This document shows positions 11,892 to 64,000 of a stretch of 64,000 bases of DNA, piece after piece. Origin of the DNA: Chitinophagales bacterium (GTDB taxonomy: Bacteria; Bacteroidota; Bacteroidia; Chitinophagales; JADJOU01). Each line of letters starts with the position of its first letter. Position 1 is the stretch's first letter. Below the pieces are notes generated by a model. The model ran no database searches. It was given only the letters and a program-made list of their open reading frames with translations, and was not told the origin of the DNA. Location: positions 62,001 through 126,000 of the forward strand of contig JAEUUY010000008.1 in assembly GCA_016787225.1 (NCBI GenBank). The letters are read 5' to 3'. The translations under genes were made by a program, and so were the position numbers.

Positions 11892-12051
11892 AAAAAAACG
11901 TCTAACAAAACCTCATTTTTCTTTTATTTTTTCATTGATTTTTGCCTCATCTTTGTTTTAGAAAAAATAATTATTAAAATATCGATTGGAATTTATCCAC
12001 AGTATATTGCAAAATAATGAAATAAAAATAGCAAAAAATGGAGATTATTCG

Positions 12052-12059
12052 TATCTTTG
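12052..12059 (+). promoter_or_regulatory. -7 box TATCTTTG that fixes the start of the 1381-aa protein
   Basis: Matches TAnnTTTG. It lies downstream of an upstream in-frame ATG at 12038 and 24 bp before the ATG at 12083, so the later ATG, which starts a clean signal peptide, is the real start. Confidence 0.65.
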
Positions 12060-12082
12060 TCAATGGTAAAAAATATCTATTT

Positions 12083-15000
12083 ATGAAACATTTATACTTT
12101 TTAGTATTGGGTATACTATTTGGCAGTGAGGCTTTGTGCCAGACTACAGTTGCCACCACGCTCACACCCAGTGGTTCTCTAGGTGGTGGTGGGTCTCATG
12201 GTATACAGTTTTGGGTTAAAAATAATAATTCATACACTATCCGATTATTTAGGATTAACGCAATGAATAGTGTAACTAGAAATCCACAAAACCATACCTA
12301 CACAGTCTCATTTAAGAATACAGCTAATAATTCGGCTCCGGGTAATATTAATGCAGGGAATGGTTGGACTTCTGCTGGAACTTTTGTGCATAATCAATGT
12401 TTCAATACATTATATCCTGTCTTATCTAATTTGGCGATAGATATTCCTGCTGGGGCGACTTATAGAATATGGATCACGAATACTGATGCAACAAACAATG
12501 TGAGAAGTTCCATATTTTTTCCATCGGTAGGTGTTACTACCAGTTCGAATGGGGGAGTAGATTTGATGACAGGCGATAGTGTCGGATGGTGGGGTTCACC
12601 CACTGCTAGTGGTGCTAGTAACCCATTTATTGACTTTATAGGGAGTATTGAATTTTATCAATTGGTATCATGTACAGGTACTCCTGAAGTTGGGAACATT
12701 ATAGGTAGTTCTGGGTCTTGCAATGGGGATACAAAATTCTACTATTTAGATGGTTACATCCCAGCGAATAATATCACCTATCAATGGCAAATATCAACTA
12801 CGTCGCCTACTACTGGTTACACTAATGTAGCGGGAAATAATACTACCATGCTAGCTAGAACACATGGAGCTACTAATGAATTTATACGCTGTATTGCTAC
12901 CTGTGGCTCTCTGCGAGATACGACGCCCGTATTTCGCGATACCTTAAATCCTTTTTACCTGTGCTATTGTAATCCTAATGCTTCAACAAATACTACAAAT
13001 TGGGGTAGCATTGAAACGGTAGAAGTTTCTACTACAAATACTTCAAATACAACAGGTACTTGTGAAACCTATACGGACTATCGTACTTTACCCATCCCAA
13101 AAGTTAGAGCTGGCGAGCTATTGAAGGTAAGGATTAAAAATAAAAGTTGCAGTCCTAATTCAAATTCAGCTGCTACTTGTTGGATCGATTTAAATAGAAG
13201 TGGGGCATTTGACGCGGCTGAGGCTATAACAGGTGGTTTTGTTTTCGGAGGTTCTGGTTCAGTAGCAACAGTTGAAAAAACTTTACAAATACCTTTAACT
13301 AATCCCCTCGGTATTACAGGTATGCGCATGAGTTTAGATGCTCTAGGAGGCACCCCACCAACCACTCCATGTTCAGCAAGTTTTTGGGGAGAGGTGGAAG
13401 AATATCTCGTTGATATCATCCGCGACTCCAATGATATCAAAATGGATTCCATAACAGGTCTGGCAGATGGCTGTGATCTAGGAAATACGAATATTAACTT
13501 TAAAGCAACCAATATAGGTCACAAAACTATGAATCCTGTCACGGTGAGTTATTCCGTCAATGGTGGTACACCGGTTACCGAGAATTTTGCTAGCTTAGCA
13601 CCGGGAGCTACGGCTGCTTATACTTTTTCTGCTCAGGCAAATCTAGCAGGTAATGGTACTAAAGTTATTCGAGTATGGCATCAGAATACCCTGGATACGA
13701 ATAAACGAAATGATACGCAAGTAATGACTATCATCAGTCATCCTACACCGCCGAATTTGACACCGATAGACGATACTGTCTGTGTGGGGTCTGACTTTAC
13801 TACTTTTACGGCTGCATCCAATCCTCCATTTATGACTCGCTGGTACACCGATGCCGGTGCATTAAATGAAATTGCTACTGGAAATAGTATCGTGGTAAAT
13901 AATCCGACAGCCTCTTCCATACGATATGCAAAATCAGTCTATACCTTTAATGGTAAGGTGGGACCAACGGCATTGACTCCGTCTATTACAGATTTTAGTT
14001 CGGTGGGTCAGGGCTTATTGTTTAATGTATTGAGAAATAGAGTTCGCATCAATTCGGTCAAGGCAAGATTTACACAGGCTGGTGTAGCAGCTATCGAAAT
14101 CAGAAGCCCATCAAATGCTGTATTACAAACGACTAGCTTCCTCATATTGACAGCCAATACAGATGTAGTTGTACCATTAAATATTGATCTACCAATAGGT
14201 ACAGGCTATAGAATGCTTATGAATTCTACCTCTGGTCAGCCTTTTTCTATCAATGGATTTTCTAGTTTTCCGCAGATGATACCTGGTGTTATTAGTATTA
14301 CTGGAAATACGAATACCTTTACACCTCCACGATACAATTATTTCTTTGACTGGGATGTCACCTACGATGCCTGTTCCAGTCCAGTGGTGCCAGTGAACTC
14401 TGTTTATCTCGGCAGTGTCAATGCTCCTCTGAAAACTTTATATAAGGATACTTTTTTCTGTCAATTTCCTACTGTCTTTTTAGATGCTAATAATGCTGGG
14501 TCTAGCTATAAATGGCATGATGGTAGTACAGGAAGAACGATACAGGTGACCAATTCTGGGGTCTATAAAGTAACAATAACTAGTCCCGAAGGTTGTAAAT
14601 CAACAGATTCTTCAAAAGTTCAAGTGCGTACATCTCCTATTTTTAATATAGGTAATGATACGACAATATGTTCTGGGAAAAAAGTCAAACTTAAATCTGG
14701 TTTTTCTAATGAAGGATTCAATCATACATGGAGCACAGGTTCTTTAGATCCATCGATTGAGGTACAGGCTCCTGGACAATACACTGTAGATGTATTTAAT
14801 ACGAATACATCCTGTGGATACAAAGACACCATCATAGTAAGCACCGTTCAAAGTCCGAATGCATTTTTAGGAAGAGATACTTTTGCATGCAATAGTGCGC
14901 CTATCACTATAAAAGCACCAAACCCGGGCAGTTATGCCTATTTATGGGATAATGGTACGAGCCTTCCTACACGTACAGTTTCGCAGAATGGGGTCAATAA

Positions 15001-16228
15001 GATTTTTGTAGAGGTGACCGATATTTCGAATCCTTATGGTTGTAAGAGTTCAGATACCTTGATAGCTGCGCTATCCAGTTTGACTAAACCAAATTTAGGA
15101 AGCGATGTGACTACCTGTACAAACCCTTATACCCTTGGTATAGCTGCAGACCCGCTCCTAGAGTATAGATGGAGTAATGGTGGAACGACCAATAATATTA
15201 AGGTGACGGAATCAAATGACTATGTACTAACTGTAACACAGGTGAATACCACATGTTCATATATGGATACTGTCAAGGTGACTATTAACTCTAATCCTCC
15301 ATTGGACTTAGGGGATGATATAGTGACCTGTAAAAATGACCCTATAACTATTACTGCTAATACAGGTTGGACGACCTATGCATGGAGCAATGGATTTAAT
15401 GTCAATAAAATCACCGTTATACCTACACCAGGTACGAATACCTATACGCTGACTGTCACAGGACCATGCGGCAATAAGACGGTTTCAAAAAATATCATTT
15501 ATACTGCAGATGTTCCGGATGTGGATTTGCCAAGTGATATGGTAGTTTGCGAGCCTACTACTCTGAGTATTACAAATCCAGGAAGTGGCATTGATGTTCT
15601 ATGGTCTACTACTGAGACAGGTCTTAGTATCACGGCTGATAAGACAGGAACGTATTGGGTAAAAGTCTCTAATGCCTGTGGCTCTAAGTCTGATGCCGTA
15701 AGAGTGACCTTTGACACTATCCCTACTCCTGAATTTATTGCGAATTGGTCTGGTAATTTTGCTTCATTCTCTAATAAAAGCACGAATGCTGTAAGTTATT
15801 ACTGGGAATTTGGTGATGATAGCACCTCTACTGACAAACATCCTACTCATATTTATAAAGATAGAAAACAATATACCGTTAAACTCACAGTTAAGAACTC
15901 TTGTGACTCTTCCGTTACCATAACAAAATCTATTGATCTTAGCAAAAAGCCTGTGGGTATACAAGTAGCTCAACTAGATGGCATTACCGTATTCCCGAAT
16001 CCTACAACCGATGTATTTACTGTGAAGTATACACAGGCAAATCAGCAAAACTATACTTTGGAACTGCTAAGTATGGACGGTAGAATCGTGAAAAATGTCA
16101 GCGATAAATTTGATTTGAATAGCGAGATAAAGCTCGATGTGTCGGATCTAGCTACAGGTAGTTATATTCTTAGACTATCTGATGTGAAAGGCAACCAGGA
16201 ACTTAAAAAACTTTCTATTATAAAATAA
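12083..16228 (+). CDS. Giant T9SS-secreted surface protein with GEVED, Ig-like and PKD domains
   Basis: A 1381-residue predicted surface or secreted protein. A signal peptide (MKHLYFLVLGILFGSEALCQ) opens it. A GEVED-type domain lies near residues 310-450 (ends WGEVEEYLVDI), followed by a CARDB-like domain. Several repeats of about 85 residues follow, with the pattern LGxDxxxC...YxWSxG...GxYxVxVT (residues about 800-1220). A PKD domain (YYWEFGDDSTSTDKHPTHIY) and a type A T9SS sorting domain from VFPNPTTDVF to LKKLSIIK complete it. Role in adhesion or gliding is inferred from architecture; the ligand is unknown. The next gene encodes a related giant only 34 bp downstream, so the pair is probably one transcript. 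Confidence 0.88.
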   Translation: MKHLYFLVLGILFGSEALCQTTVATTLTPSGSLGGGGSHGIQFWVKNNNSYTIRLFRINAMNSVTRNPQNHTYTVSFKNTANNSAPGNINAGNGWTSAGTFVHNQCFNTLYPVLSNLAIDIPAGATYRIWITNTDATNNVRSSIFFPSVGVTTSSNGGVDLMTGDSVGWWGSPTASGASNPFIDFIGSIEFYQLVSCTGTPEVGNIIGSSGSCNGDTKFYYLDGYIPANNITYQWQISTTSPTTGYTNVAGNNTTMLARTHGATNEFIRCIATCGSLRDTTPVFRDTLNPFYLCYCNPNASTNTTNWGSIETVEVSTTNTSNTTGTCETYTDYRTLPIPKVRAGELLKVRIKNKSCSPNSNSAATCWIDLNRSGAFDAAEAITGGFVFGGSGSVATVEKTLQIPLTNPLGITGMRMSLDALGGTPPTTPCSASFWGEVEEYLVDIIRDSNDIKMDSITGLADGCDLGNTNINFKATNIGHKTMNPVTVSYSVNGGTPVTENFASLAPGATAAYTFSAQANLAGNGTKVIRVWHQNTLDTNKRNDTQVMTIISHPTPPNLTPIDDTVCVGSDFTTFTAASNPPFMTRWYTDAGALNEIATGNSIVVNNPTASSIRYAKSVYTFNGKVGPTALTPSITDFSSVGQGLLFNVLRNRVRINSVKARFTQAGVAAIEIRSPSNAVLQTTSFLILTANTDVVVPLNIDLPIGTGYRMLMNSTSGQPFSINGFSSFPQMIPGVISITGNTNTFTPPRYNYFFDWDVTYDACSSPVVPVNSVYLGSVNAPLKTLYKDTFFCQFPTVFLDANNAGSSYKWHDGSTGRTIQVTNSGVYKVTITSPEGCKSTDSSKVQVRTSPIFNIGNDTTICSGKKVKLKSGFSNEGFNHTWSTGSLDPSIEVQAPGQYTVDVFNTNTSCGYKDTIIVSTVQSPNAFLGRDTFACNSAPITIKAPNPGSYAYLWDNGTSLPTRTVSQNGVNKIFVEVTDISNPYGCKSSDTLIAALSSLTKPNLGSDVTTCTNPYTLGIAADPLLEYRWSNGGTTNNIKVTESNDYVLTVTQVNTTCSYMDTVKVTINSNPPLDLGDDIVTCKNDPITITANTGWTTYAWSNGFNVNKITVIPTPGTNTYTLTVTGPCGNKTVSKNIIYTADVPDVDLPSDMVVCEPTTLSITNPGSGIDVLWSTTETGLSITADKTGTYWVKVSNACGSKSDAVRVTFDTIPTPEFIANWSGNFASFSNKSTNAVSYYWEFGDDSTSTDKHPTHIYKDRKQYTVKLTVKNSCDSSVTITKSIDLSKKPVGIQVAQLDGITVFPNPTTDVFTVKYTQANQQNYTLELLSMDGRIVKNVSDKFDLNSEIKLDVSDLATGSYILRLSDVKGNQELKKLSIIK

Positions 16229-16262
16229 ACTAATCAACCTTAATTTTTAAACACTATTGAGT

Positions 16263-19200
16263 ATGAAAAAAATTCTAAACTTGACAAAACGAATAGCTTT
16301 AGTGCTTACACTTGTTATGCTCTATCAATCGACAGATGCCTGTCCTAATAGAGGAAATATAAGAGTAGATACGAGCCGATGTGATATAGGTAGAGCTAAA
16401 CTATGGTTAGTGAATCATACAACCACTGCAGGTACTCAGTATTTCTGGCAGTCTTCCAATGATGGAGGATTGAGTTGGGGAACCATGTCTACCAATTCGG
16501 GAAGAGATACTCAATTGGTCAATACTATATTAGGTAGAATGTATCGTTGTCTATCAGTATGTCCTAGTGGAAATACCTATTCGGATACAATTATGCTTTT
16601 TTTACAGAATAGAACAATCACCGTAGACCAAATTTTTTGTAGTGCTACGGCTGGGGGTAATGATAGTTTATTGTTAAAGGCAGCTCCGCCTAATGCTATA
16701 ACTGATACCGCATTTTCGAAATATTTTAAATGGCAAGTATCTGCTACGAATGGTTTATTATGGAATGATATTGGGGGGAATTCATCAACCCTGAAAGTGG
16801 CTTTTACACCGAATGTTTTACAGTATAGAGCCTATGTTAGTTTTTGTAAACTGACAGGGCCACCATCAGGTTACCCTACAGCTGCTCCTTCATTTGTGCA
16901 GCCAGTAAGTATAGGGTTGAATAATATTGGTCTGACAATTTCAAATAAAGATTGTGTGAATGATACGGCTAGATTAAGTCTTACTAATTTAGATAATAGT
17001 TTAAGAAACTTTCTAAAATATAGATGGTCTGATTCCAATCAAGTTTCTGGGGTATTTTCATTTATGGGAAAGACGGATTCTTTTATCAATGTCAAAGTAG
17101 ATAATGTTAATAGATTCTATAGATCGAGTGTAAAACTGTGTACAAGCCCTCATCAATCCAAGGACTCCGTTTATACCAATACCTATGCGATGTGGGTAAA
17201 GTTAGGAGCTATTTCACCTGTGTTAAACTGTGCAGCGGAAGTAGTAGAATTGGATTATACTAATAGAAATCTTACTAGAAAAAGTGTTCATGTTTCATGG
17301 ACTCGCTCCCAGAATGACTCTATAACGCACTCTAGTTTTACAGATCCAGCAGATTCTATCAAGTATTCTTTTTCATTAACTAATGGAACAAATAATTTTT
17401 ATAAACTTTATTCTAAATTTTGCAATACTTCTACCAATGTCTTAGACTCTACATTTAACATTAATGTAAAACTTAAGATAGATACTGGTCAGCTAAAGGG
17501 AAGTTTCCAAACCTGTACGAATGATTCTGTTTATATGAGGTTGTTGAATTATAAGGATTCAAGTAATTTTCCTTTAGTTAAAAAGTGGATGGTTTTGAAG
17601 AATGGCAGCAGTTTTTGGGAAGATTACAATCAGGCTCCATTGACGGATACCACGATAGTATTTCGTATGAATAATGGATTGAATTCTTACAGAAAATCTG
17701 TCGCCCTCTGTGCTGATAAGTACGCTAGAAAATGGTCATCAACTGTAGCTAGTACTTTTCTCCCATATCAGGCGGTATTCAATGCTACTTGTACAGGTAG
17801 CATGACAATAAATGTCTTAAATGACACTGTAAAAATAGTCGATTATACTGGCACTATACCGCGGAGTAATTCTACCTTTGCATATCAATGGCTTCGATCT
17901 ACAAATAAAGTATCTAGTACTATTGTAGCGGGTGCAAATTCAGCCAATTTAACTATAACTCAGGCTGATAGAAGAGCCTTCTTTAGGAGATTGACAAGAA
18001 TTTGCTCTGCCAATACCTTCTCTGATACTACGAATTGGTCTAATACCACGGTCGGTAATCCTACAGCACAAAATGGTAGAGCTATCGTAGTAGACCAAAT
18101 TTGCCTCAATGAAACTGTTCGTTTGTGTTTAGATAACTATTTGCCCTTAACTACAGATACACCAACTTTCGTCTGGCAATATTCCCCTGATGATATCACT
18201 TGGACGAATATGAATACTAATAATTCAAATGACACTTGTATTACAGCGGTGGTTGGGGCTGATTTTCAATATTTCAGAAGATTGACTTATTGGTGTCCAT
18301 CTGGTCGAGTAGATTCTTCTGTATCTACACCATTAGTCTATATCAAAAATTTACCTTGGTTTGAGAGCTTTACTGCACAGCAACAGTTCGGTAGAGATAT
18401 CTTGTTTAACTGCTGGAGAGCGAGTTCTCCTGTTTGTAATACCTATAATCCAGTATATGCTGGTGGGCAAATATGGTCAAGAGCATCTGGTGGTAAATCA
18501 GATAAATTTATGTCTAATTGGGGACCTGCTCCTGTTGACCCTAAAATGCCTCCTGGTCGCAGAAATGACATGAAACTCATCACTCCTGCTTTTGATCTTA
18601 AAAGAGGTAAGGTGTATAGATTTTCTTTCTGGCATAGAGAGACTACTGCGAATATCTGCTGGGATTCACTCTATGTTACTTGGGGTACAAAGCCTACACC
18701 ATGTGATATGACAAATAAATTTGGTGAGCAATTGACAAAATTCAGCTTTGACCAATACAATAAATTCTGGTCTGATTTTACTCCACCTGATGATGGTATT
18801 TATTATTTTGCTATTAACTTAAGAGAAAGTTCACCTACAACCGGTGAGGTAGGCTTTGATGAAATAGGTTTGAAAGAGGTGGAGTCTTGTGCTGGTAAAG
18901 ATCCCGTAAAGGGCTCTACTTTTGCACCCTCTCGAATTATAGATAGATCAGAAGAGCCGAGTGCAGCGAATACCTATGACAAATCAAATGTAACCCACCA
19001 GTATTGTTTACATGATACAATTATGCTTTCTTATCAAGAAGCAAACTATAATTCTAACTTTGACTATCATGGTATGACTTATCAGTTCTGGAAAAAACGC
19101 TCCGATATCGATTGGAAGGTTGAAGATACCTTTTTCAGACCAGTACCGAGCGATACATTATGCCATATCACCAATAGATCTAACTATCATGTAATGAATG

Positions 19201-22200
19201 TATTGGTTACCGATACGCATACGTGGTATAAAATAGTAGCTACCTGTCAGTATGATGGCAAAACTTACCACTCAGATTCTTTATTAGTAAATGGTACGCA
19301 TTCTGTACCTTATTGTGAAGATTGGGAAGGTGTAGGTAATATCCAGAATCAGCAAAGCCCTATGCCAGCTCAAAATTCAGGTGAGATATCTGGTAGAGTG
19401 CCTTCCTTTGCTTATTGTCCTACTTGCTGGGCTGCCTTCCCGCAGTTTACACCGACCAACCCTCAACCGAATCCTCAAAATCTTCATAGTTTGACCCTTC
19501 CTATTCGAAATCCGCCTCCAGGACCTCCTGCACCTCCACAATTGAGCCCTGATGCTGGATATAATGGTAATAATGTCGTCATGACATCTGCCTTGGCACC
19601 TACTACGAATAGGAAAGTATTGGTCATGCCTGCTGTTAGATTATATAAAGGTAGAGGCTATCGAATCTCGATGCGATGGACGGATAATAGAACTTCGACA
19701 CAAAACCCGTGGGGAAGTGTAAATCAAGACTTGGACAGTTTGTACTTAACCGCCGTCAAAGGTAATGAATCGGGTAAGGTGATTGATAGTTTCCCTCGTT
19801 CTAAAATGGTACCAAACAGTTTGCACCTCAATCTTCAGTCGAATATTCTAGAAAATGGACCAGCAAAATACCGAACATACTGGGTAGATTATACACCGAA
19901 TGATACGGGTACTTATTTCTTTGGTATTGTTATTGTACCTGGTCCGTTGAATAATGGAGCTTATCGCTTTGTTATGGATTACTTCTGTATAGACACTATT
20001 CCTATGGATGACTGTAGTGAAATACCTAAGTTTAGAGATCCACTTCGAGTCCGTGTAAACCCTGATGGCAAAACATGGCTACCAGGAGATACTGAAATAT
20101 CTCCTGCTGGTGTGCAGTGGTGTGTGGGTAACCGTGTCAACCTAGAATTGGATTTCGGACTGGGTGCAGATAATGCATGGAAGTATGGATGGAAACATAT
20201 TTGGTTAAGAACATTAATGGATTACAATCTTCCACCAGCGAATGGAAACCCATGGCATCCTAGCATAGTTTGGACAAAGGTAGATTCTACCAATGGTATT
20301 AATTATTTATTGACCAATAAATTTCAAGATTATGCACTTATTTTATCGAATAGCTGTAGCACAAAGTTTGACACCATAGGTCCTTTTAAAGTGCGAGCAT
20401 TTCGTGGTACCGAGTCTTGTGTAGTAGGTTTAAGAGAGACTTTTTTAAATGAACAGTTTAATTTTGCTGCTGTACTTCCACAGTGCTGGGATGTATATCC
20501 TCAGTGTCGAGTCAAAATATTAGATGATGCTGGTGTGGGTAATGAATTCCGTCAAAAATCTAAATTGGATAAGAACTATCTAGATATGGATTTCATCTCT
20601 CCTGCCACGGGTACCTGTCCTATGCCTACAGTACAAACCTTCGTTCCACCGGGTTATGGTGTCACGGGTGGTGTTACTTATAGATTTTCATTCTGGTATA
20701 AAGACAATGGTATCAGTGTGCCTATTGATTCTATCGTAGCAGGTTATTCCTTCTTGAGACCTACTGATGTTTATCAGGTTCGCTTATTGAATAGAGTGAA
20801 TAATGACGTCGTGAAAAATTCTAGAACGAATAAATGGAGATACTATACCACAGAGGTAACTCCTGCGGTAGATACCGCTATTCACTTCAAGGTTAAGACG
20901 TTTAATTTAGGTAATAAGCGTATTTATAGAACCATGTTCGATGATTTATTATTTAAACCTAAGCAGAATATAGATGCCTTGGTCATAGCAATAGATTCAC
21001 CAGAATATGCATGTGATTTAACTGCCAATACCACCGTAAAGGTAACGGTAATGAATATTGGTAATAGTAGTATAACAAATCTGCCAATAAAAGTACAAGC
21101 AGGAACAGCTACGCCTACTAGTTTTACTGTTTCAGGTACTTTAGCATCGAATGAGACCAGAACAGTATTGGTGCCTAATGTAGATTTGTCAACTGTAGGG
21201 ACGAATATAGTCAAAGCATGGACAGAGGCACCGGGAGAGCAGTTTACTTGTGATGATACCTTCTTTACAGAAATTATACATCTGGAAATGCCTAAAAAAC
21301 CAACAGATACTATAGATTCAGTCTGTGTCTGTACTTCTCACACAATGTATGCTCCATATGCCAATGCGCGGTGGTATAAGAATGCAACTGACTTTACACC
21401 TATATTTAGTGGACCAGAATTTAAAATGGATTCTGTATGTAAGGATACCAATATCTATTATTCGATGTGGAATGGTGCAGAGTGTAATACCTATCCACCG
21501 AACTTCTCCTATGGTGCCCCGACGTATAGTGCTGCAGCTGGAGGTATAGCTTTTGATAATATTTCTAAAGATACCATACTCATAGATAGTGTCATGGTGT
21601 ACGCCAATACCTTGAGTCCTGGTCCTACTTTAAACTTGACTTTAACTCAATTTGTTGGTGGACAACAAGTTACGATTATTTCGGTAAATGCGCCAGGAAT
21701 TACTAAGTTAGGTAGACAGTGGATTCCTGTGAAAATTAAAGTACCCCCAGGAACCGATTATAAACTACGATATGGTGGTGGTGCATCTCTAGCACAACTA
21801 CCTGGATTTATATTCTTAGGTGCGGGTTGCGTGACTATGGATATTAATTTCTACGGAGATGAGAATTATCCTACTGCTGCTACTGCTTATAAGTACTTCT
21901 TTAATTGGAAATTAATAAGATTAGGTTGCGAATCGGAGCGCGTCAAAAAAGACATCAAGATTGTTCCTTCACCTAAATTTCAGTTAAAGGATACCGCACG
22001 AGTTTGTTCGCGTCCTATTTTCCAATTCTGTGGTCCAGCAGCGCCTGTAGGTGATGTATACCGCTATAAGTGGGCATCTGCAGATCCTAATGATACGAAT
22101 CAATGCAAACCAGCTACGGCTACTGGTTGGTTTAAGTTGACCGTAACAAATTCCTTTGGTTGTGAAGAAAAGGACAGTACTCAAACAATAGTAGACCCAT

Positions 22201-23849
22201 CCCCTGAGTTTACTTTGGGAGCAGATACTAGTTTCTGTCGCTTCACCCCTCACACACTTTCTACTGGTCTCAGCCCAGCGAATAATGTGGTGACATGGAG
22301 TGATAATCAGGCTGGAGTTAGTATTAGTATCTTGAATCCTGGTACTTATATTGCTACTGCTTATAATACTCAAAACTTCTGTACGGCTAAGGATACTATT
22401 AATGTGATACGGCATGAATTGCCTGTATTTTCTCTAGGAAATGATCGTGTATTCTGTGGCGGCACTGCTGATTTACAAGCATTAGCGACGAATATGCCAT
22501 CAAACCTTACTTACACATGGGGTGGTCCAGCACCAGTTCCAGTCATTAATAAGTCTGGGAAGTATTGGGCGACTGGGTTTGATCCTGTTACAAAGTGCAG
22601 AAGTACAGATACGGTTCAAGCTAACCTACAACCAAAACCTACGTTTGATTTAGGTCCTAATGTATTGGCTTGTGGCAGTAGCTATACGATAAATGGACCC
22701 ACTGGAAACCTCTTCTACAAATGGAGTACTACCGCTACGACTAGATCTATAGCCGTATCAGCACCTGGCATGTACTATTTGACGGTGACGGATAAGACAT
22801 TCGGCTGTGATTTTGTAGATTCGGTTCAGATAGGATTTAAAGTAGTTCCTGTATTTGATTTAGGAGCTGATGTTGTCAAATGTGATATTACTCACTTACT
22901 CACAGGACCTACACCACCTGCTGGTGATACCTATACTTATTCTTGGAAAAAACCTGATGGTAGTTTGGCTACTGGTTCTACCTTTATTGCTGACAAGTCA
23001 GGAGTTTACTATCTCACCGTAGATAATGCATGCTATAACTTCCGAGATAGTATTCGTATTACGCTGAAAGTACGTCCAACCGAGGCTATAGATTTATTAA
23101 AAGATACGTTTGGTTGTAAAAAAGTAAATTTACAGGCTACATCCACGACTACGTATACCAATCTTACATGGACTGGACCTGCTGGGTCTGCAGTGACAGG
23201 TTCTAAAGCAAATATGGTCTTAGCCGATAAGACGGGTACATATTCCGTGTCATTAACCAATGAATGTGGTTCGGCTACGAAAGCAGCTTATGTTCGCATT
23301 GATGACCTGCCTGTGGCTGACTTTAGGGTCGAGTATATTGACTCTCTTGGTGGCGATACGTGTATGTCCATAGTGTTGAAAAATGATTCTAGAAATGCAA
23401 TTACCTATCTGTGGTCATTTGGAGACGGTAAAACTTCTTCTATTGAGAACCCATTACATGTCTACGAACAGGAGGGTAGTTTCTTAGTCACGCTTAAAGC
23501 TTATAATTCTTGTGGATTCTCGTCTAAAACGGTTGCGATCAAGAAACGAAGCTACAGATGCTCTACCTTAGGTATTGCCGGTCAAGATTTCAAAGCTTCA
23601 GATATTTACATTTATCCTAACCCTGCACGAGATCAAACACAAATTTTAGGTGTAGGTCTGCCTAATGGAAGTTATCGATTGTCTATTAGAAACATATTGG
23701 GTCAGTTAGTATTTAATGATGATATCAAAGTGATAGGTAATGAAGTGAATGTCAAATTAGAAACGGCTAAGTTTTCTAATGGTGAATATCTCATTGAGTT
23801 GTCGAACGATTATGAATCGATAGTGAGAAAACTACAGGTTGTAAAGTAA
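16263..23849 (+). CDS. Giant T9SS-secreted surface protein (2528 aa)
   Basis: A 2528-residue exported protein. The ATG at 16263 is preferred to the in-frame TTG six bases before it because it begins the signal peptide (MKKILNLTKRIALVLTLVM). The N-terminal third has repeats with paired Cys and YxW patterns. Two or three MAM/jelly-roll-like modules follow (GRVYRFSFWHRE-type strands: GKVYRFSFWHRE, GRGYRISMRWTD, GVTYRFSFWYKD). The last 600 residues hold LGxDxxxC Ig-like repeats as in the upstream protein, a PKD domain (YLWSFGDGKTSSIENPLHVY) and a T9SS type A sorting domain (IYIYPNPARD to VRKLQVVK). The ligand is unknown. A strong terminator follows. Confidence 0.88.
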   Translation: MKKILNLTKRIALVLTLVMLYQSTDACPNRGNIRVDTSRCDIGRAKLWLVNHTTTAGTQYFWQSSNDGGLSWGTMSTNSGRDTQLVNTILGRMYRCLSVCPSGNTYSDTIMLFLQNRTITVDQIFCSATAGGNDSLLLKAAPPNAITDTAFSKYFKWQVSATNGLLWNDIGGNSSTLKVAFTPNVLQYRAYVSFCKLTGPPSGYPTAAPSFVQPVSIGLNNIGLTISNKDCVNDTARLSLTNLDNSLRNFLKYRWSDSNQVSGVFSFMGKTDSFINVKVDNVNRFYRSSVKLCTSPHQSKDSVYTNTYAMWVKLGAISPVLNCAAEVVELDYTNRNLTRKSVHVSWTRSQNDSITHSSFTDPADSIKYSFSLTNGTNNFYKLYSKFCNTSTNVLDSTFNINVKLKIDTGQLKGSFQTCTNDSVYMRLLNYKDSSNFPLVKKWMVLKNGSSFWEDYNQAPLTDTTIVFRMNNGLNSYRKSVALCADKYARKWSSTVASTFLPYQAVFNATCTGSMTINVLNDTVKIVDYTGTIPRSNSTFAYQWLRSTNKVSSTIVAGANSANLTITQADRRAFFRRLTRICSANTFSDTTNWSNTTVGNPTAQNGRAIVVDQICLNETVRLCLDNYLPLTTDTPTFVWQYSPDDITWTNMNTNNSNDTCITAVVGADFQYFRRLTYWCPSGRVDSSVSTPLVYIKNLPWFESFTAQQQFGRDILFNCWRASSPVCNTYNPVYAGGQIWSRASGGKSDKFMSNWGPAPVDPKMPPGRRNDMKLITPAFDLKRGKVYRFSFWHRETTANICWDSLYVTWGTKPTPCDMTNKFGEQLTKFSFDQYNKFWSDFTPPDDGIYYFAINLRESSPTTGEVGFDEIGLKEVESCAGKDPVKGSTFAPSRIIDRSEEPSAANTYDKSNVTHQYCLHDTIMLSYQEANYNSNFDYHGMTYQFWKKRSDIDWKVEDTFFRPVPSDTLCHITNRSNYHVMNVLVTDTHTWYKIVATCQYDGKTYHSDSLLVNGTHSVPYCEDWEGVGNIQNQQSPMPAQNSGEISGRVPSFAYCPTCWAAFPQFTPTNPQPNPQNLHSLTLPIRNPPPGPPAPPQLSPDAGYNGNNVVMTSALAPTTNRKVLVMPAVRLYKGRGYRISMRWTDNRTSTQNPWGSVNQDLDSLYLTAVKGNESGKVIDSFPRSKMVPNSLHLNLQSNILENGPAKYRTYWVDYTPNDTGTYFFGIVIVPGPLNNGAYRFVMDYFCIDTIPMDDCSEIPKFRDPLRVRVNPDGKTWLPGDTEISPAGVQWCVGNRVNLELDFGLGADNAWKYGWKHIWLRTLMDYNLPPANGNPWHPSIVWTKVDSTNGINYLLTNKFQDYALILSNSCSTKFDTIGPFKVRAFRGTESCVVGLRETFLNEQFNFAAVLPQCWDVYPQCRVKILDDAGVGNEFRQKSKLDKNYLDMDFISPATGTCPMPTVQTFVPPGYGVTGGVTYRFSFWYKDNGISVPIDSIVAGYSFLRPTDVYQVRLLNRVNNDVVKNSRTNKWRYYTTEVTPAVDTAIHFKVKTFNLGNKRIYRTMFDDLLFKPKQNIDALVIAIDSPEYACDLTANTTVKVTVMNIGNSSITNLPIKVQAGTATPTSFTVSGTLASNETRTVLVPNVDLSTVGTNIVKAWTEAPGEQFTCDDTFFTEIIHLEMPKKPTDTIDSVCVCTSHTMYAPYANARWYKNATDFTPIFSGPEFKMDSVCKDTNIYYSMWNGAECNTYPPNFSYGAPTYSAAAGGIAFDNISKDTILIDSVMVYANTLSPGPTLNLTLTQFVGGQQVTIISVNAPGITKLGRQWIPVKIKVPPGTDYKLRYGGGASLAQLPGFIFLGAGCVTMDINFYGDENYPTAATAYKYFFNWKLIRLGCESERVKKDIKIVPSPKFQLKDTARVCSRPIFQFCGPAAPVGDVYRYKWASADPNDTNQCKPATATGWFKLTVTNSFGCEEKDSTQTIVDPSPEFTLGADTSFCRFTPHTLSTGLSPANNVVTWSDNQAGVSISILNPGTYIATAYNTQNFCTAKDTINVIRHELPVFSLGNDRVFCGGTADLQALATNMPSNLTYTWGGPAPVPVINKSGKYWATGFDPVTKCRSTDTVQANLQPKPTFDLGPNVLACGSSYTINGPTGNLFYKWSTTATTRSIAVSAPGMYYLTVTDKTFGCDFVDSVQIGFKVVPVFDLGADVVKCDITHLLTGPTPPAGDTYTYSWKKPDGSLATGSTFIADKSGVYYLTVDNACYNFRDSIRITLKVRPTEAIDLLKDTFGCKKVNLQATSTTTYTNLTWTGPAGSAVTGSKANMVLADKTGTYSVSLTNECGSATKAAYVRIDDLPVADFRVEYIDSLGGDTCMSIVLKNDSRNAITYLWSFGDGKTSSIENPLHVYEQEGSFLVTLKAYNSCGFSSKTVAIKKRSYRCSTLGIAGQDFKASDIYIYPNPARDQTQILGVGLPNGSYRLSIRNILGQLVFNDDIKVIGNEVNVKLETAKFSNGEYLIELSNDYESIVRKLQVVK

Positions 23850-60590: not shown

Positions 60591-60642
60591 ATTATGAAAG
60601 AAATAAAAGCTATATTCTTCCCTCTCTAGTGCGAGTTTGTAA

Positions 60643-60773
60643 CCCCGCTATCGGTAGTCTGCGATTAAATGCTAGTGCACGAGTTCGGCAGCGTTTGGCG
60701 AAGTTTTTAACTTCGTCAGTGCGTTAGTAAATTTGTAATTTACAAAAGAAAAGCTATTTTTGTAACTATAAAA
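60643..60773 (+). repeat. RAYT-associated palindromic leader, copy 1
   Basis: The block begins with CCCCGCTATCGG (decayed form of the palindrome CCGCTAGCGG). It contains GAAGTTTTTAACTTC (60700-60714) and the 17-bp palindrome GTAAATTTGTAATTTAC (60727-60743), then a -7 box TATTTTTG (60755-60762). The same blocks occur before copies 2 and 3 of the transposase. Confidence 0.8.
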
Positions 60774-61097
60774 ATGAGCACAGGATACAAGATTTTAGAC
60801 CAGAATGCATTATTCTATTTGACGTTCCAGATAGTAGATTGGGTAGATATATTTACACGAAAAATTTATAAAGATATTGTTATAGAAAGTTTCAGTTATT
60901 GTATGGAGCATAAGGGATTGAACTTATATGCTTATGTCATCATGTCTAATCATATTCATTTGATAGCTAGTGCTAGAGAAGGATTTGCATTGAGTGATAT
61001 CATCAGAGATTTCAAGAAGCATACTGCTAAACGATTTTTAGAAGAAATAAGCAAGCCAACAGAAAGTAGAAATGACCCCGCTAGCGGTAGTCTGTGA
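60774..61097 (+). pseudogene. REP-associated tyrosine transposase (RAYT), copy 1, 3' truncated
   Basis: The first 100 codons encode the N-terminal half of a Y1/IS200-like transposase of the RAYT type, with the HUH metal motif in SNHIHLIASA. Similarity to copy 2 stops sharply at 61075/61076, where a new palindromic leader begins; the last seven residues (PASGSL and neighbours) are read from that leader. The catalytic Tyr half is missing, so this copy is inactive. Confidence 0.88.
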
Positions 61098-61208
61098 TTA
61101 ATTGCTAGTGCACGAGTTCTGCAGCGTTAGGCGAAGTTTGCAACTTCGTCTAAGTGTTAGTAAATTTGTAATTTACAAAATAAAAAAGCTAATTTTGTAA
61201 CGATAAAG
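61076..61208 (+). repeat. RAYT-associated palindromic leader, copy 2
   Basis: Starts with CC and the perfect palindrome CCGCTAGCGG (61078-61087), then GAAGTTTGCAACTTC (61133-61147) and GTAAATTTGTAATTTAC (61160-61176). It joins directly to the truncated end of transposase copy 1. Confidence 0.82.
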
Positions 61209-61757
61209 ATGAGCACAGGATACAAGATTTTAGACCAGAATGCATTGTTTTAATTGACGTTTCAGATAGTAGATTGGGTGGATATTTTTACACGAAAAAT
61301 TTATAAAGATATTGTTATTGATAGCTTCTTGTATTGTATGTAGCATAAAGGATTGGATTTATACGCTTATGTAATTATGTCGAATCATATTCATTTGATA
61401 GCTAGTGCTAGAGAAGGATTTGCATTGAGTGATATCATCAGAGATTTCAAGAAGCATACTGCTAAGCAATTTTTAGAAGAAATAAACAAGCCAACTGAAA
61501 GTAGAAATGATTGGATGTTAAAACGATTTGAATTCGCTGCTAAAAGGCACAAAAGAAACAGTGAGTTTCAAATATGGACGCACGAGAATCATGCTGTGGA
61601 GCATGTTTCGAATAAGTTTATTGATCAGAAACTGAATTATATTCATGAAAATCCAGTAAGAGCAGGTATCGTATATAAAGCAGAAGACTATATGTATAGC
61701 AGTGCGTCGAACTATATTTTAGGAGAAGGAATTATAAATGTCAAGATATTGGAATGA
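61209..61757 (+). pseudogene. RAYT transposase, copy 2, with two in-frame stops
   Basis: Reading from the ATG at 61209, codon 15 is TAA (61251-61253; a Tyr codon in copies 1 and 3) and codon 45 is TAG (61341-61343; Glu in copy 1). The rest is intact: the HUH motif SNHIHL and the C-terminal half with LNYIHENPVRAGIV, which holds the likely nucleophile Tyr. The stop overlaps the start of the following RHS frame (ATGA). A downstream TTG at 61353 could in principle start a shortened protein. Confidence 0.88.
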
Positions 61758-63121
61758 AATCAAAGATTTCAATACACAGCGACGCAGTCAGAGACTGCGC
61801 CGAACAGGGGAGCCTGACCGCTTTTCAGAGTGTAGTATTCGAAGAGACCGTAGTGACACCAAGGTATGCCCCAGAGAATCTCATGTGGCGTGAGCAGCAC
61901 CTCTATGGCAGCAGTAGGTTAGGTATGCTGAGACCCGATCTAGATATAGTCGATATCACGGCGCTGCCACCAGCAGACTGGTTAGCCATGAAGCAGTACG
62001 AACTCACCAATCACCTCGGTAATGTCCTCTCTACCGTCAAAGACGAAAAACTACAGCTAGACCTCAACTGCGATGGACTGGTAGATGCCTACGAACCTAT
62101 TGTGCTTAATGCTACGGATTACTACCCCTTCGGTATGCCGATGCCGAATCGGACATACTCCTTATCTTCAAGCAATTATAGGTTTGGGTTCAATGGGAAA
62201 GAGAAAGATAATGAGATATATGGAGATGGGAATGCAGTCGATTTTGGTGCGAGAGTGCACGACCCAAGATTAGGAAGATGGTTATCAGTTGACAAAAAAT
62301 TCCAAAATTCACCTTATTTTACTCCTTATAATTTTGCAGCTAATAATCCAATCGTATATATAGATCCCGATGGGAATACTGAATTTTATTTTAATGGAGA
62401 ACACATTGGGTCTGATAAAATAGAAAATGGTCTTATTGGAATAGTTACAGATTTAGCTATTAAAATTGAAATTGGTGAAAAAAAAGTATATCCTTCATCA
62501 ATTGAAAATGGAAAAGCATTTAATGGGGGATTTGCACTTCATTTAGATGTTTTGAAACAAGGTCTTGAAGATTTTAAAAGAGCTGAAAAGTCATGGAAAA
62601 AGGGGAAAATTCGAGAACAAACTTCTGTAATGATAAAAAATTCGTCAGGAGGTTACGATGTAACCTTTACAGGCGAAGGTCCAGATGCAAAAAAATCTGA
62701 TTCAAGGGCTTCAGCATCAATTCCTCCTGGCGACGTCTCAAGTCATTCTCATCCATTGGACGTAGAGGTAAGTAAGGATGGTAAATCATCTTATTATGAC
62801 GCTCTCATACCATCTCCACCTAGAGCGGATGGAAAAGGAGGAGATAAACTGGCATTCAAAGAATATTCAATTAATTTAATTGTAGGGAAAAATGGAGTGC
62901 CCAAAATTCATAGTGAATATGAGCAACAAACAGATATTAATGGAGCACCGAAAAAAAATAGCGATGGAGAGCAACTATATACAAAAAAAATTAATTATAC
63001 AATTATCGATGGGAGGGAATCAGCAATTAATGTATTTGACTCTCAATCACAATTAGTTGGTACCGTAAATGTAGATCATGCAAAATCCATTGTTAAGAAT
63101 GAGAACAAAAGAAAGAAATAG
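61754..63121 (+). CDS. Orphan RHS core with C-terminal toxin-like domain (5' truncated)
   Basis: A 455-residue reading frame that is the tail of a much larger RHS protein. The RHS core (WREQHLYGSSRLGM, ATDYYPFGMPMPNRTY, FGFNGKEKDNEIYG, DFGARVHDPRLGRWLSVD) spans residues about 45-200 and ends with NNPIVYIDPDG. The tip (about 205-455) is AT-rich and unrelated to the core. Within it, SSHSHPLD followed by PSPPRADGKGGD resembles the JAMM metal motif HxHP...SxxD of JAB-type toxin domains. The first 20-25 codons are really transposon end sequence with a palindrome, so the ATG is probably fortuitous and the gene is a displaced fragment. It may serve as a reservoir tip for recombination with a full RHS gene elsewhere. 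Confidence 0.75.
   Translation: MKSKISIHSDAVRDCAEQGSLTAFQSVVFEETVVTPRYAPENLMWREQHLYGSSRLGMLRPDLDIVDITALPPADWLAMKQYELTNHLGNVLSTVKDEKLQLDLNCDGLVDAYEPIVLNATDYYPFGMPMPNRTYSLSSSNYRFGFNGKEKDNEIYGDGNAVDFGARVHDPRLGRWLSVDKKFQNSPYFTPYNFAANNPIVYIDPDGNTEFYFNGEHIGSDKIENGLIGIVTDLAIKIEIGEKKVYPSSIENGKAFNGGFALHLDVLKQGLEDFKRAEKSWKKGKIREQTSVMIKNSSGGYDVTFTGEGPDAKKSDSRASASIPPGDVSSHSHPLDVEVSKDGKSSYYDALIPSPPRADGKGGDKLAFKEYSINLIVGKNGVPKIHSEYEQQTDINGAPKKNSDGEQLYTKKINYTIIDGRESAINVFDSQSQLVGTVNVDHAKSIVKNENKRKK
61783..61799. repeat. Palindrome at the right end of RAYT copy 2
   Basis: CGCAGTC-AGA-GACTGCG forms a perfect 7-bp stem 25 bp after the transposase stop, where REP hairpins are expected to mark the element's right end. 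RHS similarity starts only after it. Confidence 0.55.
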
Positions 63122-63584
63122 ATTTTTCATAAGGCTTATTCTTTTTTGGTTTCTAGTATTAAAATTTAGTCTAGTTTTTGGAATTGAAATTAAAGTAGTT
63201 TCAGGAGATGGAATTGAAGTTGTTGATTCAATTTTAATTTTTTCGAATCAAGATAAAATTACTTACAAATTCGAAGCTATTACTAGGGAAAAACTCAATA
63301 AATTAGATTGTGTAACAATTTTAGCGATAAAAAATAAAAAAATTTGTATTCGAATTGATTATGATAAAATATTTTGTGATACAATTAAAATCAAATTAAA
63401 TCAATTCCCTGATTGCACGCCAACAAGTAATCTTATTGGAACCTATCAATCTTGTCAGGGTATGGGTCATACTTATGGTTTTTTCTCATTTGATTACCCC
63501 TGTTGCCCTAATGTTGAACTTGCTCCATATTACTACATAGGAAAGAAAAAGTATTATTTTTCAAAAAAGAAGAAAAAACGATAA
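63099..63584 (+). CDS. Candidate immunity protein for the RHS tip
   Basis: 161 residues from the ATG at 63099, which overlaps the end of the RHS frame by 23 bases. A signal peptide or anchor (FFIRLILFWFLVLKFSLVFG) is followed by a small domain with seven Cys (including an adjacent CC pair) and a very basic tail of Lys and Ser. I recognise no family. Position directly behind a toxin tip, low GC and export signal fit an immunity protein acting in the periplasm; this is inference. Confidence 0.55.
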   Translation: MRTKERNRFFIRLILFWFLVLKFSLVFGIEIKVVSGDGIEVVDSILIFSNQDKITYKFEAITREKLNKLDCVTILAIKNKKICIRIDYDKIFCDTIKIKLNQFPDCTPTSNLIGTYQSCQGMGHTYGFFSFDYPCCPNVELAPYYYIGKKKYYFSKKKKKR

Positions 63585-63590
63585 GCCTTC

Positions 63591-63940
63591 CTAGCTCGGC
63601 GTAGTGTGGCGTGATTTTTTGGCGAAGTTTGCAACCTAGCTCGGCGTAGTGTGGCGTGGTTGTTTGGCGAAGTTTGCAACTTCGTCAGTGCGTTAGTAAA
63701 TTTGTAATTTACAGAAAGAAGTTAGAAGTGTCAGGCATTGCGCTTGATATTTTTTATTGCGGATATTTATCGGGGTCCTTAGCTCGGCGCACTGTGGCGT
63801 GGTTGTTTGGCGATCCCGATAACCTAGTTCGCCGTATAGTGCAGTCGAAGTCGTGCTGTGTTCGGCATAGTTTTTAACTATTTCGGAGCGTTCGTAAATT
63901 TGTAATTTACAAAAGAAAAGCTATTTTTGTAACTATAAAA
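63591..63940 (+). repeat. Composite repeat region before RAYT copy 3
   Basis: Two 45-bp direct repeats (63591-63635 and 63636-63680) begin CTAGCTCGGCGTAGTGTGG and end GCGAAGTTTGCAAC; a diverged third copy starts near 63779. GAAGTTTGCAACTTC is at 63669-63683. The palindrome GTAAATTTGTAATTTAC occurs twice (63696-63712, 63894-63910). The last 45 bp are identical to the leader of copy 1. An open frame across this region is not a gene. Confidence 0.75.
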
Positions 63941-64000
63941 ATGAGCACAGGATACAAGATTTTAGACCAGAATGCATTATTTTATTTGACGTTCCAGATA
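63941..64000 (+). CDS. RAYT transposase, copy 3 (5' end, runs off window)
   Basis: The first 20 codons (MSTGYKILDQNALFYLTFQI) match copy 1 except for one silent change (ATTC/ATTT). No stop is seen, so it may be the intact, active copy, but the rest lies outside the window. Confidence 0.8.
   Translation, partial: MSTGYKILDQNALFYLTFQI

What the first reader, a model, noticed from the sequence alone, without database searches (positions are those of the whole stretch)
60643..64000. Three RAYT copies in three states of decay sharing one palindromic leader
Seen: copy 1 is cut at codon 100 exactly where a second leader starts with CCCCGCTAG; copy 2 has two stop codons; copy 3 starts intact at the window end. 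Leaders share GAAGTTTGCAACTTC and GTAAATTTGTAATTTAC (four copies). The join at 61075/61076 fixes the left end of the moving unit, and the palindrome at 61783 suggests its right end.
Basis: partly seen in the sequence, partly recalled or inferred. Interest (0 to 1): 0.5.

Follow-up and report, generated by a model that had tools for sequence, protein, structure and literature searches.

The report
Jumping RAYT gene with hairpin ends
Three related copies of a small DNA-cutting gene, each with the same kind of folded-hairpin ends, look like copies of one jumping element; elements of this kind often sit right behind genes of the type bacteria use as toxins against each other, which may help those genes shuffle.

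Summary
Copy 1 is cut at 61075, copy 2 has two stops, and copy 3 is intact (182 aa) once read past 64000. All four GTAAATTTGTAATTTAC copies are real. The "leader" is the left end of a mobile unit: two hairpins overlapping a promoter-like sequence. The right end carries two related hairpins in inverted order and closes at 61810, not at the 61783 palindrome.

The genome has four RAYT copies. Of six RAYT-less exact palindromes, four have the same right end (one cut short): short derivatives. In other Bacteroidota, whole RAYT units occur as near-identical pairs (751/752; 701/720) in unrelated flanks, which says the unit moves. Copy 2 is not a clean insertion; copy 1's remainder is absent.

New here: RAYT units gather behind RHS toxin-type genes. 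In 10 of 80 loci an RHS core lies 1.7-3.7 kb upstream on the same strand; in relatives 6 of 122 RAYT-like rows lie within 5 kb, 0.58 expected. Whether RAYT shuffles these cassettes is unproven. The kind is known (RAYT subclass 2.6, TIRtron); no paper listed by my searches links it with RHS.

The parts
60594..60620 (+). short stretch like the start of the HAD-type gene that lies beyond the insertion
   Evidence: by eye, similar to the HAD gene start in same-genus G003 and G002 at the site without the insertion
60621..60642 (+). half left end (5' arm and loop only) of a sister element family, ending in TTTGTAA where copy 1 begins
   Evidence: same sequence type at C13:1449 and C13:3563
60643..61075 (+). 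copy 1: left end with two hairpins plus RAYT codons 1-100, truncated
61076..61208 (+). left end of copy 2: CCCCGCTAGCGGTAG block, hairpin A (GGCGAAGTTTGCAACTTCGTC), hairpin B (61160-61176)
   Evidence: hairpin covariation
61209..61757 (+). RAYT copy 2, pseudogene with two stops
61756..61810 (+). right end of copy 2: hairpin B' GAAATCAAAGATTTC (61756-61770), hairpin A' GACGCAGTCAGAGACTGCGCC (61781-61801), terminus CGAACAGGGG
61754..63121 (+). RHS tip: ORF whose ATG lies in the right end of copy 2, RHS core (62120-62374), then a C-terminal part without relatives in the genomes searched
   Evidence: TIGR03696 49 bits over cut-off 32.5
63078..63584 (+). immunity-like gene (168 aa, signal-peptide-like start by eye), stop codon 5 bases before the next left-end block
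   Evidence: position only; no Pfam or NCBIfam hit
63590..63822 (+). array of partial left ends (45-bp units ending in TTTGCAA, one with hairpins A and B, no RAYT)
63823..63940 (+). left end of copy 3, with hairpin B 63894-63910 and a promoter-like TTG-N19-TATTTTTG (63900-63929)
63941..64000 (+). RAYT copy 3, intact 182-aa ORF that continues to 64489 in the genome; its right end closes at 64542, outside the window
   Evidence: NF047646 97.4 bits over 80

Best explanation
The region holds one truncated, one broken and one intact copy of a mobile unit of about 0.72-0.74 kb: left end (two hairpins) - promoter - RAYT gene - right end (two hairpins, inverted). Shown: the unit exists in several copies, both ends are shared by short RAYT-less derivatives, and in other Bacteroidota whole units occur as near-identical pairs in unrelated flanks. 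Inferred: the HUH/Y1 protein recognises the hairpins as single strands, nicks near them and moves the unit, serving RAYT-less derivatives in trans, by analogy with TnpA of IS200/IS605 and TnpA-REP. Hairpin B overlaps the upstream half of the promoter-like sequence, so binding there could also shut down the gene (inference). Copy 2 arrived in copy 1; later rearrangement removed the rest of copy 1 and left an RHS tip with an immunity-like gene between copies 2 and 3 (inference).
For: Four RAYT copies in the genome. Fifteen left-end matches, seven right-end matches (seven with another query). Own RAYT-less pair C29a/b 184 of 186 identical in unrelated flanks, fixing the ends CTCTGTTCG...GAGCGGGG. 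G007: two RAYT units 751 of 752 identical, flanks unrelated; Cytophagales L057/L060 701 of 720, Mangrovivirga L048/L049 623 of 712. Flanking inverted matches are element-specific: 40 of 76 loci above the 99th percentile of cross-locus pairs, 52 of 76 above the 95th. Hairpins with arms of at least 7: 1.42 upstream and 1.41 downstream per 250 bp in 73 loci, 0.25 in 122 far tiles. Covariation in 13 left ends: 97.5% of cells paired, four pairs changed on both sides, 0 of 500 shuffles reach the covariation score. dN/dS 0.07-0.10 in the five of six copy pairs with amino-acid changes; the sixth, copy 1 and C13, has none. Sites without the insertion in G003 and G002: 262 and 268 bp between matched flanks where this genome has about 4.7 kb, a Uma2-type gene included.
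Against: No before/after pair of one insertion with strain-level flanks. Copy 2 lacks copy 1's remainder on its right. No target duplication seen that would confirm the ends. Both G007 copies carry an internal TAA, so that pair moved in trans or was copied otherwise. Some left ends have no right end (63696, C20:41893, C19:99454). 24 of 76 relatives show no inverted match above the 95th percentile, and same-strand matches within a locus are as high on average (85.6 against 75.8), so that test shows locus-specific repeats more than inversion alone.
Confidence: 0.85

Rival explanations
1. Canonical REP/BIME situation: a domesticated, non-moving RAYT and REP-like palindromes that it scatters; the extra RAYT copies are accidents.
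For: Partial left ends occur alone and in small tandem arrays; [quoted passage not shown] That RAYTs are mostly one per genome is recalled.
Against: Four RAYT copies here, three of them with a left and a right end, near-identical RAYT units in unrelated flanks elsewhere, only fifteen left-end matches rather than hundreds.
Confidence: 0.08
2. Tandem or segmental duplication and homologous recombination between repeats made the three copies; the element no longer moves.
For: The copies lie within 3.9 kb, on one strand, and the locus is clearly rearranged. The 45-bp partial left ends look like slippage or footprints.
Against: Copy 1 is nearest to the C13 copy, not to copy 2 (dS 0.04 versus 0.35); the own RAYT-less pair C29a/b and two foreign RAYT pairs end exactly at the hairpin termini.
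Confidence: 0.07
3. RAYT units gather behind RHS genes only because such loci tolerate any insertion; the cassettes and the element are unrelated passengers.
For: RAYT units tend to follow genes in the same direction anyway (56 of 72 upstream neighbours co-directional); 70 of 80 loci have no RHS core in the stretch held; short or lipoprotein neighbours are not enriched in the 80 loci; an IS1-like transposase ORF, by eye, lies in one RHS array (L143) and another in L077.
Against: The excess is strong in two sets (6 of 122 versus 0.58 expected, P 2.5e-5 under random placement; 10 of 80) and the arrangement repeats in several orders (record titles).
Confidence: 0.55

Closest known systems
RAYT / TnpA-REP subclass 2.6 (Quentin et al. 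2018; Bertels group 5)
   Same: Bacteroidota, about 180 aa, NHxH and YIHxNP motifs, SS near the C-terminus, gene flanked by 'atypical secondary structures' with further copies in the genome (PMC6006769, passages).
   Different: Here the structures are resolved as two-hairpin inverted ends, with short derivatives and with signs that RAYT-bearing units move. [quoted passage not shown] W is followed by T here (WQ in the table) and the Y motif is YIHENP (YIH[QN]NP in the table).
TIRtron / TIRYT (Di Nocera et al. 2013)
   Same: RAYT-like gene between terminal inverted repeats, some self-complementary, with extra TIR copies in the genome (PMC3733652, section 16 read).
   Different: Its GGGGWSAS motif was not tested for; ends here read CCCCTGTTCG-like ... 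CGAACAGGGG. That section does not mention RHS.
IS200/IS605 family (TnpA Y1 transposases)
   Same: HUH/Y1 protein and hairpin ends.
   Different: Below the IS200 model cut-off (28.3 of 55 bits); two hairpins per end, the two ends being imperfect inverted repeats of each other.
rAID arrays of Bacteroidales
   Same: A DNA-joining enzyme gene, co-oriented short immunity-like genes and conserved intergenic motifs (PMC12247911, passages); compare contig C13.
   Different: Enzyme is an HUH/Y1 protein, not a tyrosine recombinase; immunity function unproven.
rhs tip displacement
   Same: Orphan tips and immunity genes behind an RHS gene (PMC2935791: search listing with start of abstract, and one passage; orphan detail recalled).
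   Different: The word 'transposase' occurs 0 times in that paper's held text; a mobile element as agent is not shown here either.

Membership tests
REP-associated tyrosine transposase (RAYT) | protein passes the family model NF047646 | tested here: met
   97.4 bits against cut-off 80 for copy 3
REP-associated tyrosine transposase (RAYT) | HUH motif and single catalytic Tyr in context | tested here: met
   NHIH and YIHENP read in copy 3; among the motif rows printed for 80 relatives, NHxH in 68 and YIHxNP in 64 by regular expression
Canonical REP/REPtron | GTAG (or GT[AG]G) tetranucleotide at the 5' foot of the REP hairpin | tested here: not met
   by eye, GTAG lies inside the hairpin arm (CGTAGTC), not at the foot, in the own-genome blocks read
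RAYT subclass 2.6 | NH[LIV]H, WQ, YIH[QN]NP, SS, about 179 aa, Bacteroidetes | tested here: inconclusive
   NHIH, SS and 182 aa fit; WT and YIHENP deviate in one residue each (against the table); no tree was built
TIRtron | RAYT gene between terminal inverted repeats | tested here: met
   ends read; imperfect in this genome, near-perfect in L057/L060
TIRtron | GGGGWSAS motif in the TIR | not tested
   only the end sequences were read; no search for this motif was made
IS200/IS605 | passes the IS200/IS605 transposase model NF033573 | tested here: not met
   28.3 bits, cut-off 55
IS200/IS605 | single-strand circle intermediate, insertion 3' of a fixed target | not testable with these tools
   needs biochemistry; own left ends mostly follow A by eye, but 26 CCCC-type starts in relatives are preceded by A 11, T 11, G 4, so no fixed target is seen
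rAID | tyrosine recombinase gene with the array | tested here: inconclusive
   the array's enzyme is a RAYT; no tyrosine recombinase was recognised by eye among the ORFs listed around it, but only five small C13 genes were scanned against families

The most novel reading that the evidence does not exclude
A single-strand (HUH/Y1) RAYT element family of Bacteroidota acts as a shuffler of RHS toxin tips and immunity genes: its hairpin ends bracket [toxin tail - immunity gene] cassettes, pairs of elements or mismatched ends carry cassettes as compound units, and arrays of orphan immunity genes build up between ends, an HUH counterpart of rAID arrays and of tip displacement.
Probability: 0.25. Interest if true: 0.78.

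Novelty: new variant of a known kind. Interest (0 to 1): 0.52.

Why it matters
RAYTs are usually described as domesticated, non-moving genes; here defined ends, short derivatives and near-identical RAYT-bearing copies in unrelated flanks say that this subclass still moves or did so recently. That makes its ends and chemistry directly testable. The repeated position behind RHS modules gives a concrete candidate for how such tips and orphan immunity genes are exchanged in Bacteroidota.

Tried and rejected
Rejected: copy 1/copy 2 as a tandem duplication; palindromes as chance; the C14 and C26 one-mismatch palindromes as family members (C14 is absent from the left-end matches; C26 matches weakly there, E 1.8e-5, with no right end seen). 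The idea that the unit targets the NNP motif of RHS cores: one locus (L080), none of the other 79 within 700 bp by regular expression. The idea that its neighbours are generally short lipoproteins: not supported in 80 loci (lipobox upstream 6 of 50, downstream 2 of 46, other genes 26 of 229; 70-260 aa in 27 of 50, 34 of 46, 142 of 229). Immunity identity: seven immunity-like genes have no Pfam match over a cut-off (weak ones below cut-off only), five of them no NCBIfam match over a cut-off, and the C8 toxin-like C-terminal part has no match in 396 genomes but its own. PDB search gave only a weak IS200-type hit, 2ec2, E 0.009. A first RHS test used 78 chosen rows (6 versus 0.42); it was redone with 122 rows: the non-G000 rows without six second rows that I took for parts of a gene already counted. 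That model places RAYTs at random over the genome length and ignores contig ends. For the 80-locus RHS count there is no matched base rate; a view of up to 5 kb also favours finding an RHS core upstream, because the core lies near the 3' end of its gene.
Full report
What is there. The window is bases 62001-126000 of contig C8 of a 2.96 Mb, 34-contig genome; most of the 80 RAYT relatives carry Bacteroidota record titles. At its right end lie three RAYT copies in one orientation. Copy 1 is 60643-61075 (left end plus 100 codons), copy 2 is 61076-61810 (two stop codons), copy 3 begins at 63823 and, in sequence beyond the window, has an intact 182-aa gene (63941-64489) and a right end closing at 64542. 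A fourth copy with two stops is on contig C13. The palindrome GTAAATTTGTAATTTAC occurs four times in the window against 0.07 expected and ten times exactly in the genome, with none for the reversed control pattern.

The unit. The left end is a CCCCGCTA- or CTCTGTTCG-type terminus, hairpin A (GGCGAAG...CTTCGTC) and hairpin B (GTAAATTTGTAATTTAC); the right end has a matching pair in inverted order (GAAATCAGAGATTTC, then GACGTAGTC..GACTACGCC, then CGAACAGGGG). There are 15 left-end matches and 7 right-end matches (another query also gave 7). Six of the ten exact palindromes have no RAYT: C6, C13:773, C29:31313 and C31 (right end cut short) carry the same right end about 100 bases on, i.e. they are RAYT-less derivatives of roughly 150-190 bp; 63696 and C20:41893 do not, nor does the diverged block at C19:99454. 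C29a and C29b agree in 184 of 186 bases and then stop on both sides, which fixes the ends. In 13 left ends (11 own, 2 from G001) the hairpins covary: 97.5% of cells are standard pairs, four pairs changed on both sides, no shuffle of 500 reaches the covariation score, and slid versions pair in 26-46%. Related rows inflate such counts, and the number of further pair types is not above shuffles (8 against 7.6), but the change ATAG/CTAT against GAAG/CTTC is direct.

The gene. Copy 3 passes the NCBIfam model for REP-associated tyrosine transposases (97.4 bits, cut-off 80) and fails the IS200 model (28.3, cut-off 55). Substitutions between copies are mostly silent: dN/dS is 0.07-0.10 in the five of six pairs that have amino-acid changes, with dS 0.16-0.35; copy 1 is nearest to the C13 copy (dS 0.04, no amino-acid change) and far from copy 2 (dS 0.35). 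So the copies were under selection as genes, and copy 2 is a separate arrival, not a tandem duplicate of copy 1. A TTG-N19-TAnnTTTG sequence (recalled as the Bacteroidota promoter type, not from a call) starts in hairpin B and ends 11 bases before the ATG in copies 1 and 3 and similarly in C13; in copy 2 the pattern matched at another place, and by eye the same site reads TTG-N21-TAATTTTG. TAnnTTTG lies within 60 bases of the start in 23 of 79 relatives against 2.5 expected from shuffles and 7 of 253 far tiles; with the TTG at the right spacing only 5.

Does it move? In 76 of the 80 loci with both flanks, upstream and reverse-complemented downstream regions match each other better than cross-locus pairs: mean 75.8 against 36.1, 40 above the 99th and 52 above the 95th percentile. 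Same-strand matches within a locus were also high (mean 85.6), because many flanks hold repeated palindromes, so the test shows locus-specific repeats more than inversion alone. The clearest evidence is pairs: in G007 two RAYT units agree in 751 of 752 bases with unrelated flanks, in a Cytophagales genome 701 of 720, in Mangrovivirga halotolerans 623 of 712. In the first two, identity ends at the hairpin termini; in the Mangrovivirga pair my alignment starts a few bases inside the left terminus. Both G007 copies carry an internal TAA, so that pair was moved in trans or copied otherwise. In two same-genus genomes, G003 and G002, the place after prmC is without the insertion (262 and 268 bp between matched flanks, against about 4.7 kb here, a Uma2-type gene included); G001 has a relic there: by eye a right-end-like stretch, a small lipoprotein-like gene and, right at its stop codon, a left-end relic.

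What does not fit a clean story. Copy 1's missing part does not follow copy 2; an RHS fragment does, and its ORF (61754-63121) begins with an ATG inside copy 2's right end. The left flank of copy 1 holds about 27 bases like the start of the HAD gene that now lies about 5 kb away. Partial left ends of 22-45 bp end repeatedly in the loop TTTGYAA and are followed at once by another left end (60642, 63634, C13:2101); whether these are footprints of excision or slippage I cannot tell.

The RHS link. In this genome an RHS tip and a 168-aa immunity-like gene lie between copies 2 and 3. On C13 and C19, short genes of 131-196 aa follow toxin-tail-like fragments or right ends, and stop codons fall 0-5 bases before the next left end (63584, C13:2055, C13:3562, C19:99410); the gene ending at C13:1468 runs into one. 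Calling them immunity genes is inference from position and, for most, lipoprotein-like starts seen by eye; no family matched over a cut-off. In G001 an RHS core match below the model's cut-off (29.8 of 32.5 bits) is followed by an M23-peptidase ORF (Pfam 42.4 bits), a lipoprotein-like gene and, 10 bases after its stop, a left end. In relatives, 6 of 122 RAYT-like rows lie within 5 kb of an RHS core, 0.58 expected, P 2.5e-5. In five of the six (G014 C28 and C143, G059, G012, G049) the RAYT lies downstream of an RHS core on the same strand; the sixth, a RAYT fragment at a contig start in G054, does not. In a second set, 10 of 80 loci have an RHS core upstream on the same strand, the nearest core of the main RHS ORF 1.7-3.7 kb before RAYT; one of them (L080) has further core fragments 0.25 kb upstream and 2 kb downstream; none was found on the opposite strand. 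All ten RHS ORFs pass TIGR03696. Between RHS and RAYT there is at least one same-strand ORF of 115-253 aa in each. By record title the ten are Cytophagales, Bacteroidales including Paludibacter, Chitinophagales and Flavobacteriaceae-type genomes.

Against a causal role: upstream neighbours of RAYT are co-directional in 56 of 72 loci anyway, 70 of 80 loci have no RHS core in the stretch held, neighbours are not generally short lipoproteins, and RHS arrays may collect any element. I could not run the control with other IS families.

Known or new. The gene belongs with RAYTs; motifs fit subclass 2.6 save one residue in each of two motifs (passages of PMC6006769). [quoted passage not shown] TIR-flanked RAYTs were named TIRtrons in PMC3733652 (section 16 read); a search for TIRYT or TIRtron found two papers, these two. 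Searches that could pair Rhs with RAYT (whole-word matching, so the plural was not counted) listed 20 of 30 and 10 of 181 papers; none of those listed holds RAYT, and the unlisted ones I did not see. So the element is a known kind; the resolved two-hairpin ends, the RAYT-less derivatives, the near-identical RAYT-bearing pairs and the RHS association are what this report adds.

Noticed in passing
L016 (contig C13) 739-4601: Five co-oriented short genes (97-164 aa), four with lipoprotein-like or membrane starts by eye, interleaved with toxin-tail-like fragments, element ends and a RAYT pseudogene, downstream of a tRNA-like sequence at about 409-482 (by eye); resembles an orphan immunity array.
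   Followed up: partly
L026 (contig C19 98437-99702): tRNA-like sequence (by eye), then a solo right end whose ATG opens a 77-aa ORF, a 196-aa lipoprotein-like gene and left-end blocks.
   Followed up: partly
window 60594-60620: About 27 bases resembling the start of the HAD-type gene that lies about 5 kb downstream; trace of how the segment was inserted or replaced.
   Followed up: partly
L151 (G007 C4): Two RAYT units 751/752 identical, each with an internal stop: a broken unit that was copied, perhaps in trans.
   Followed up: yes
L080 4727-5001: Left end of a Flavobacterium RAYT unit starts inside an RHS core fragment, after AACAA.
   Followed up: partly
L157 (G001 C44) about 620-850: RAYT-less element whose right end is interrupted by another small palindrome.
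   Followed up: no
L147, L148 (G037 C1 952000-988000): Long run of RHS cores, some in short ORFs; sequence between cassettes not examined.
   Followed up: no
window 12038-23849: Two very large neighbouring genes (1396 and 2530 aa) with PKD and Por secretion tail domains.
   Followed up: no
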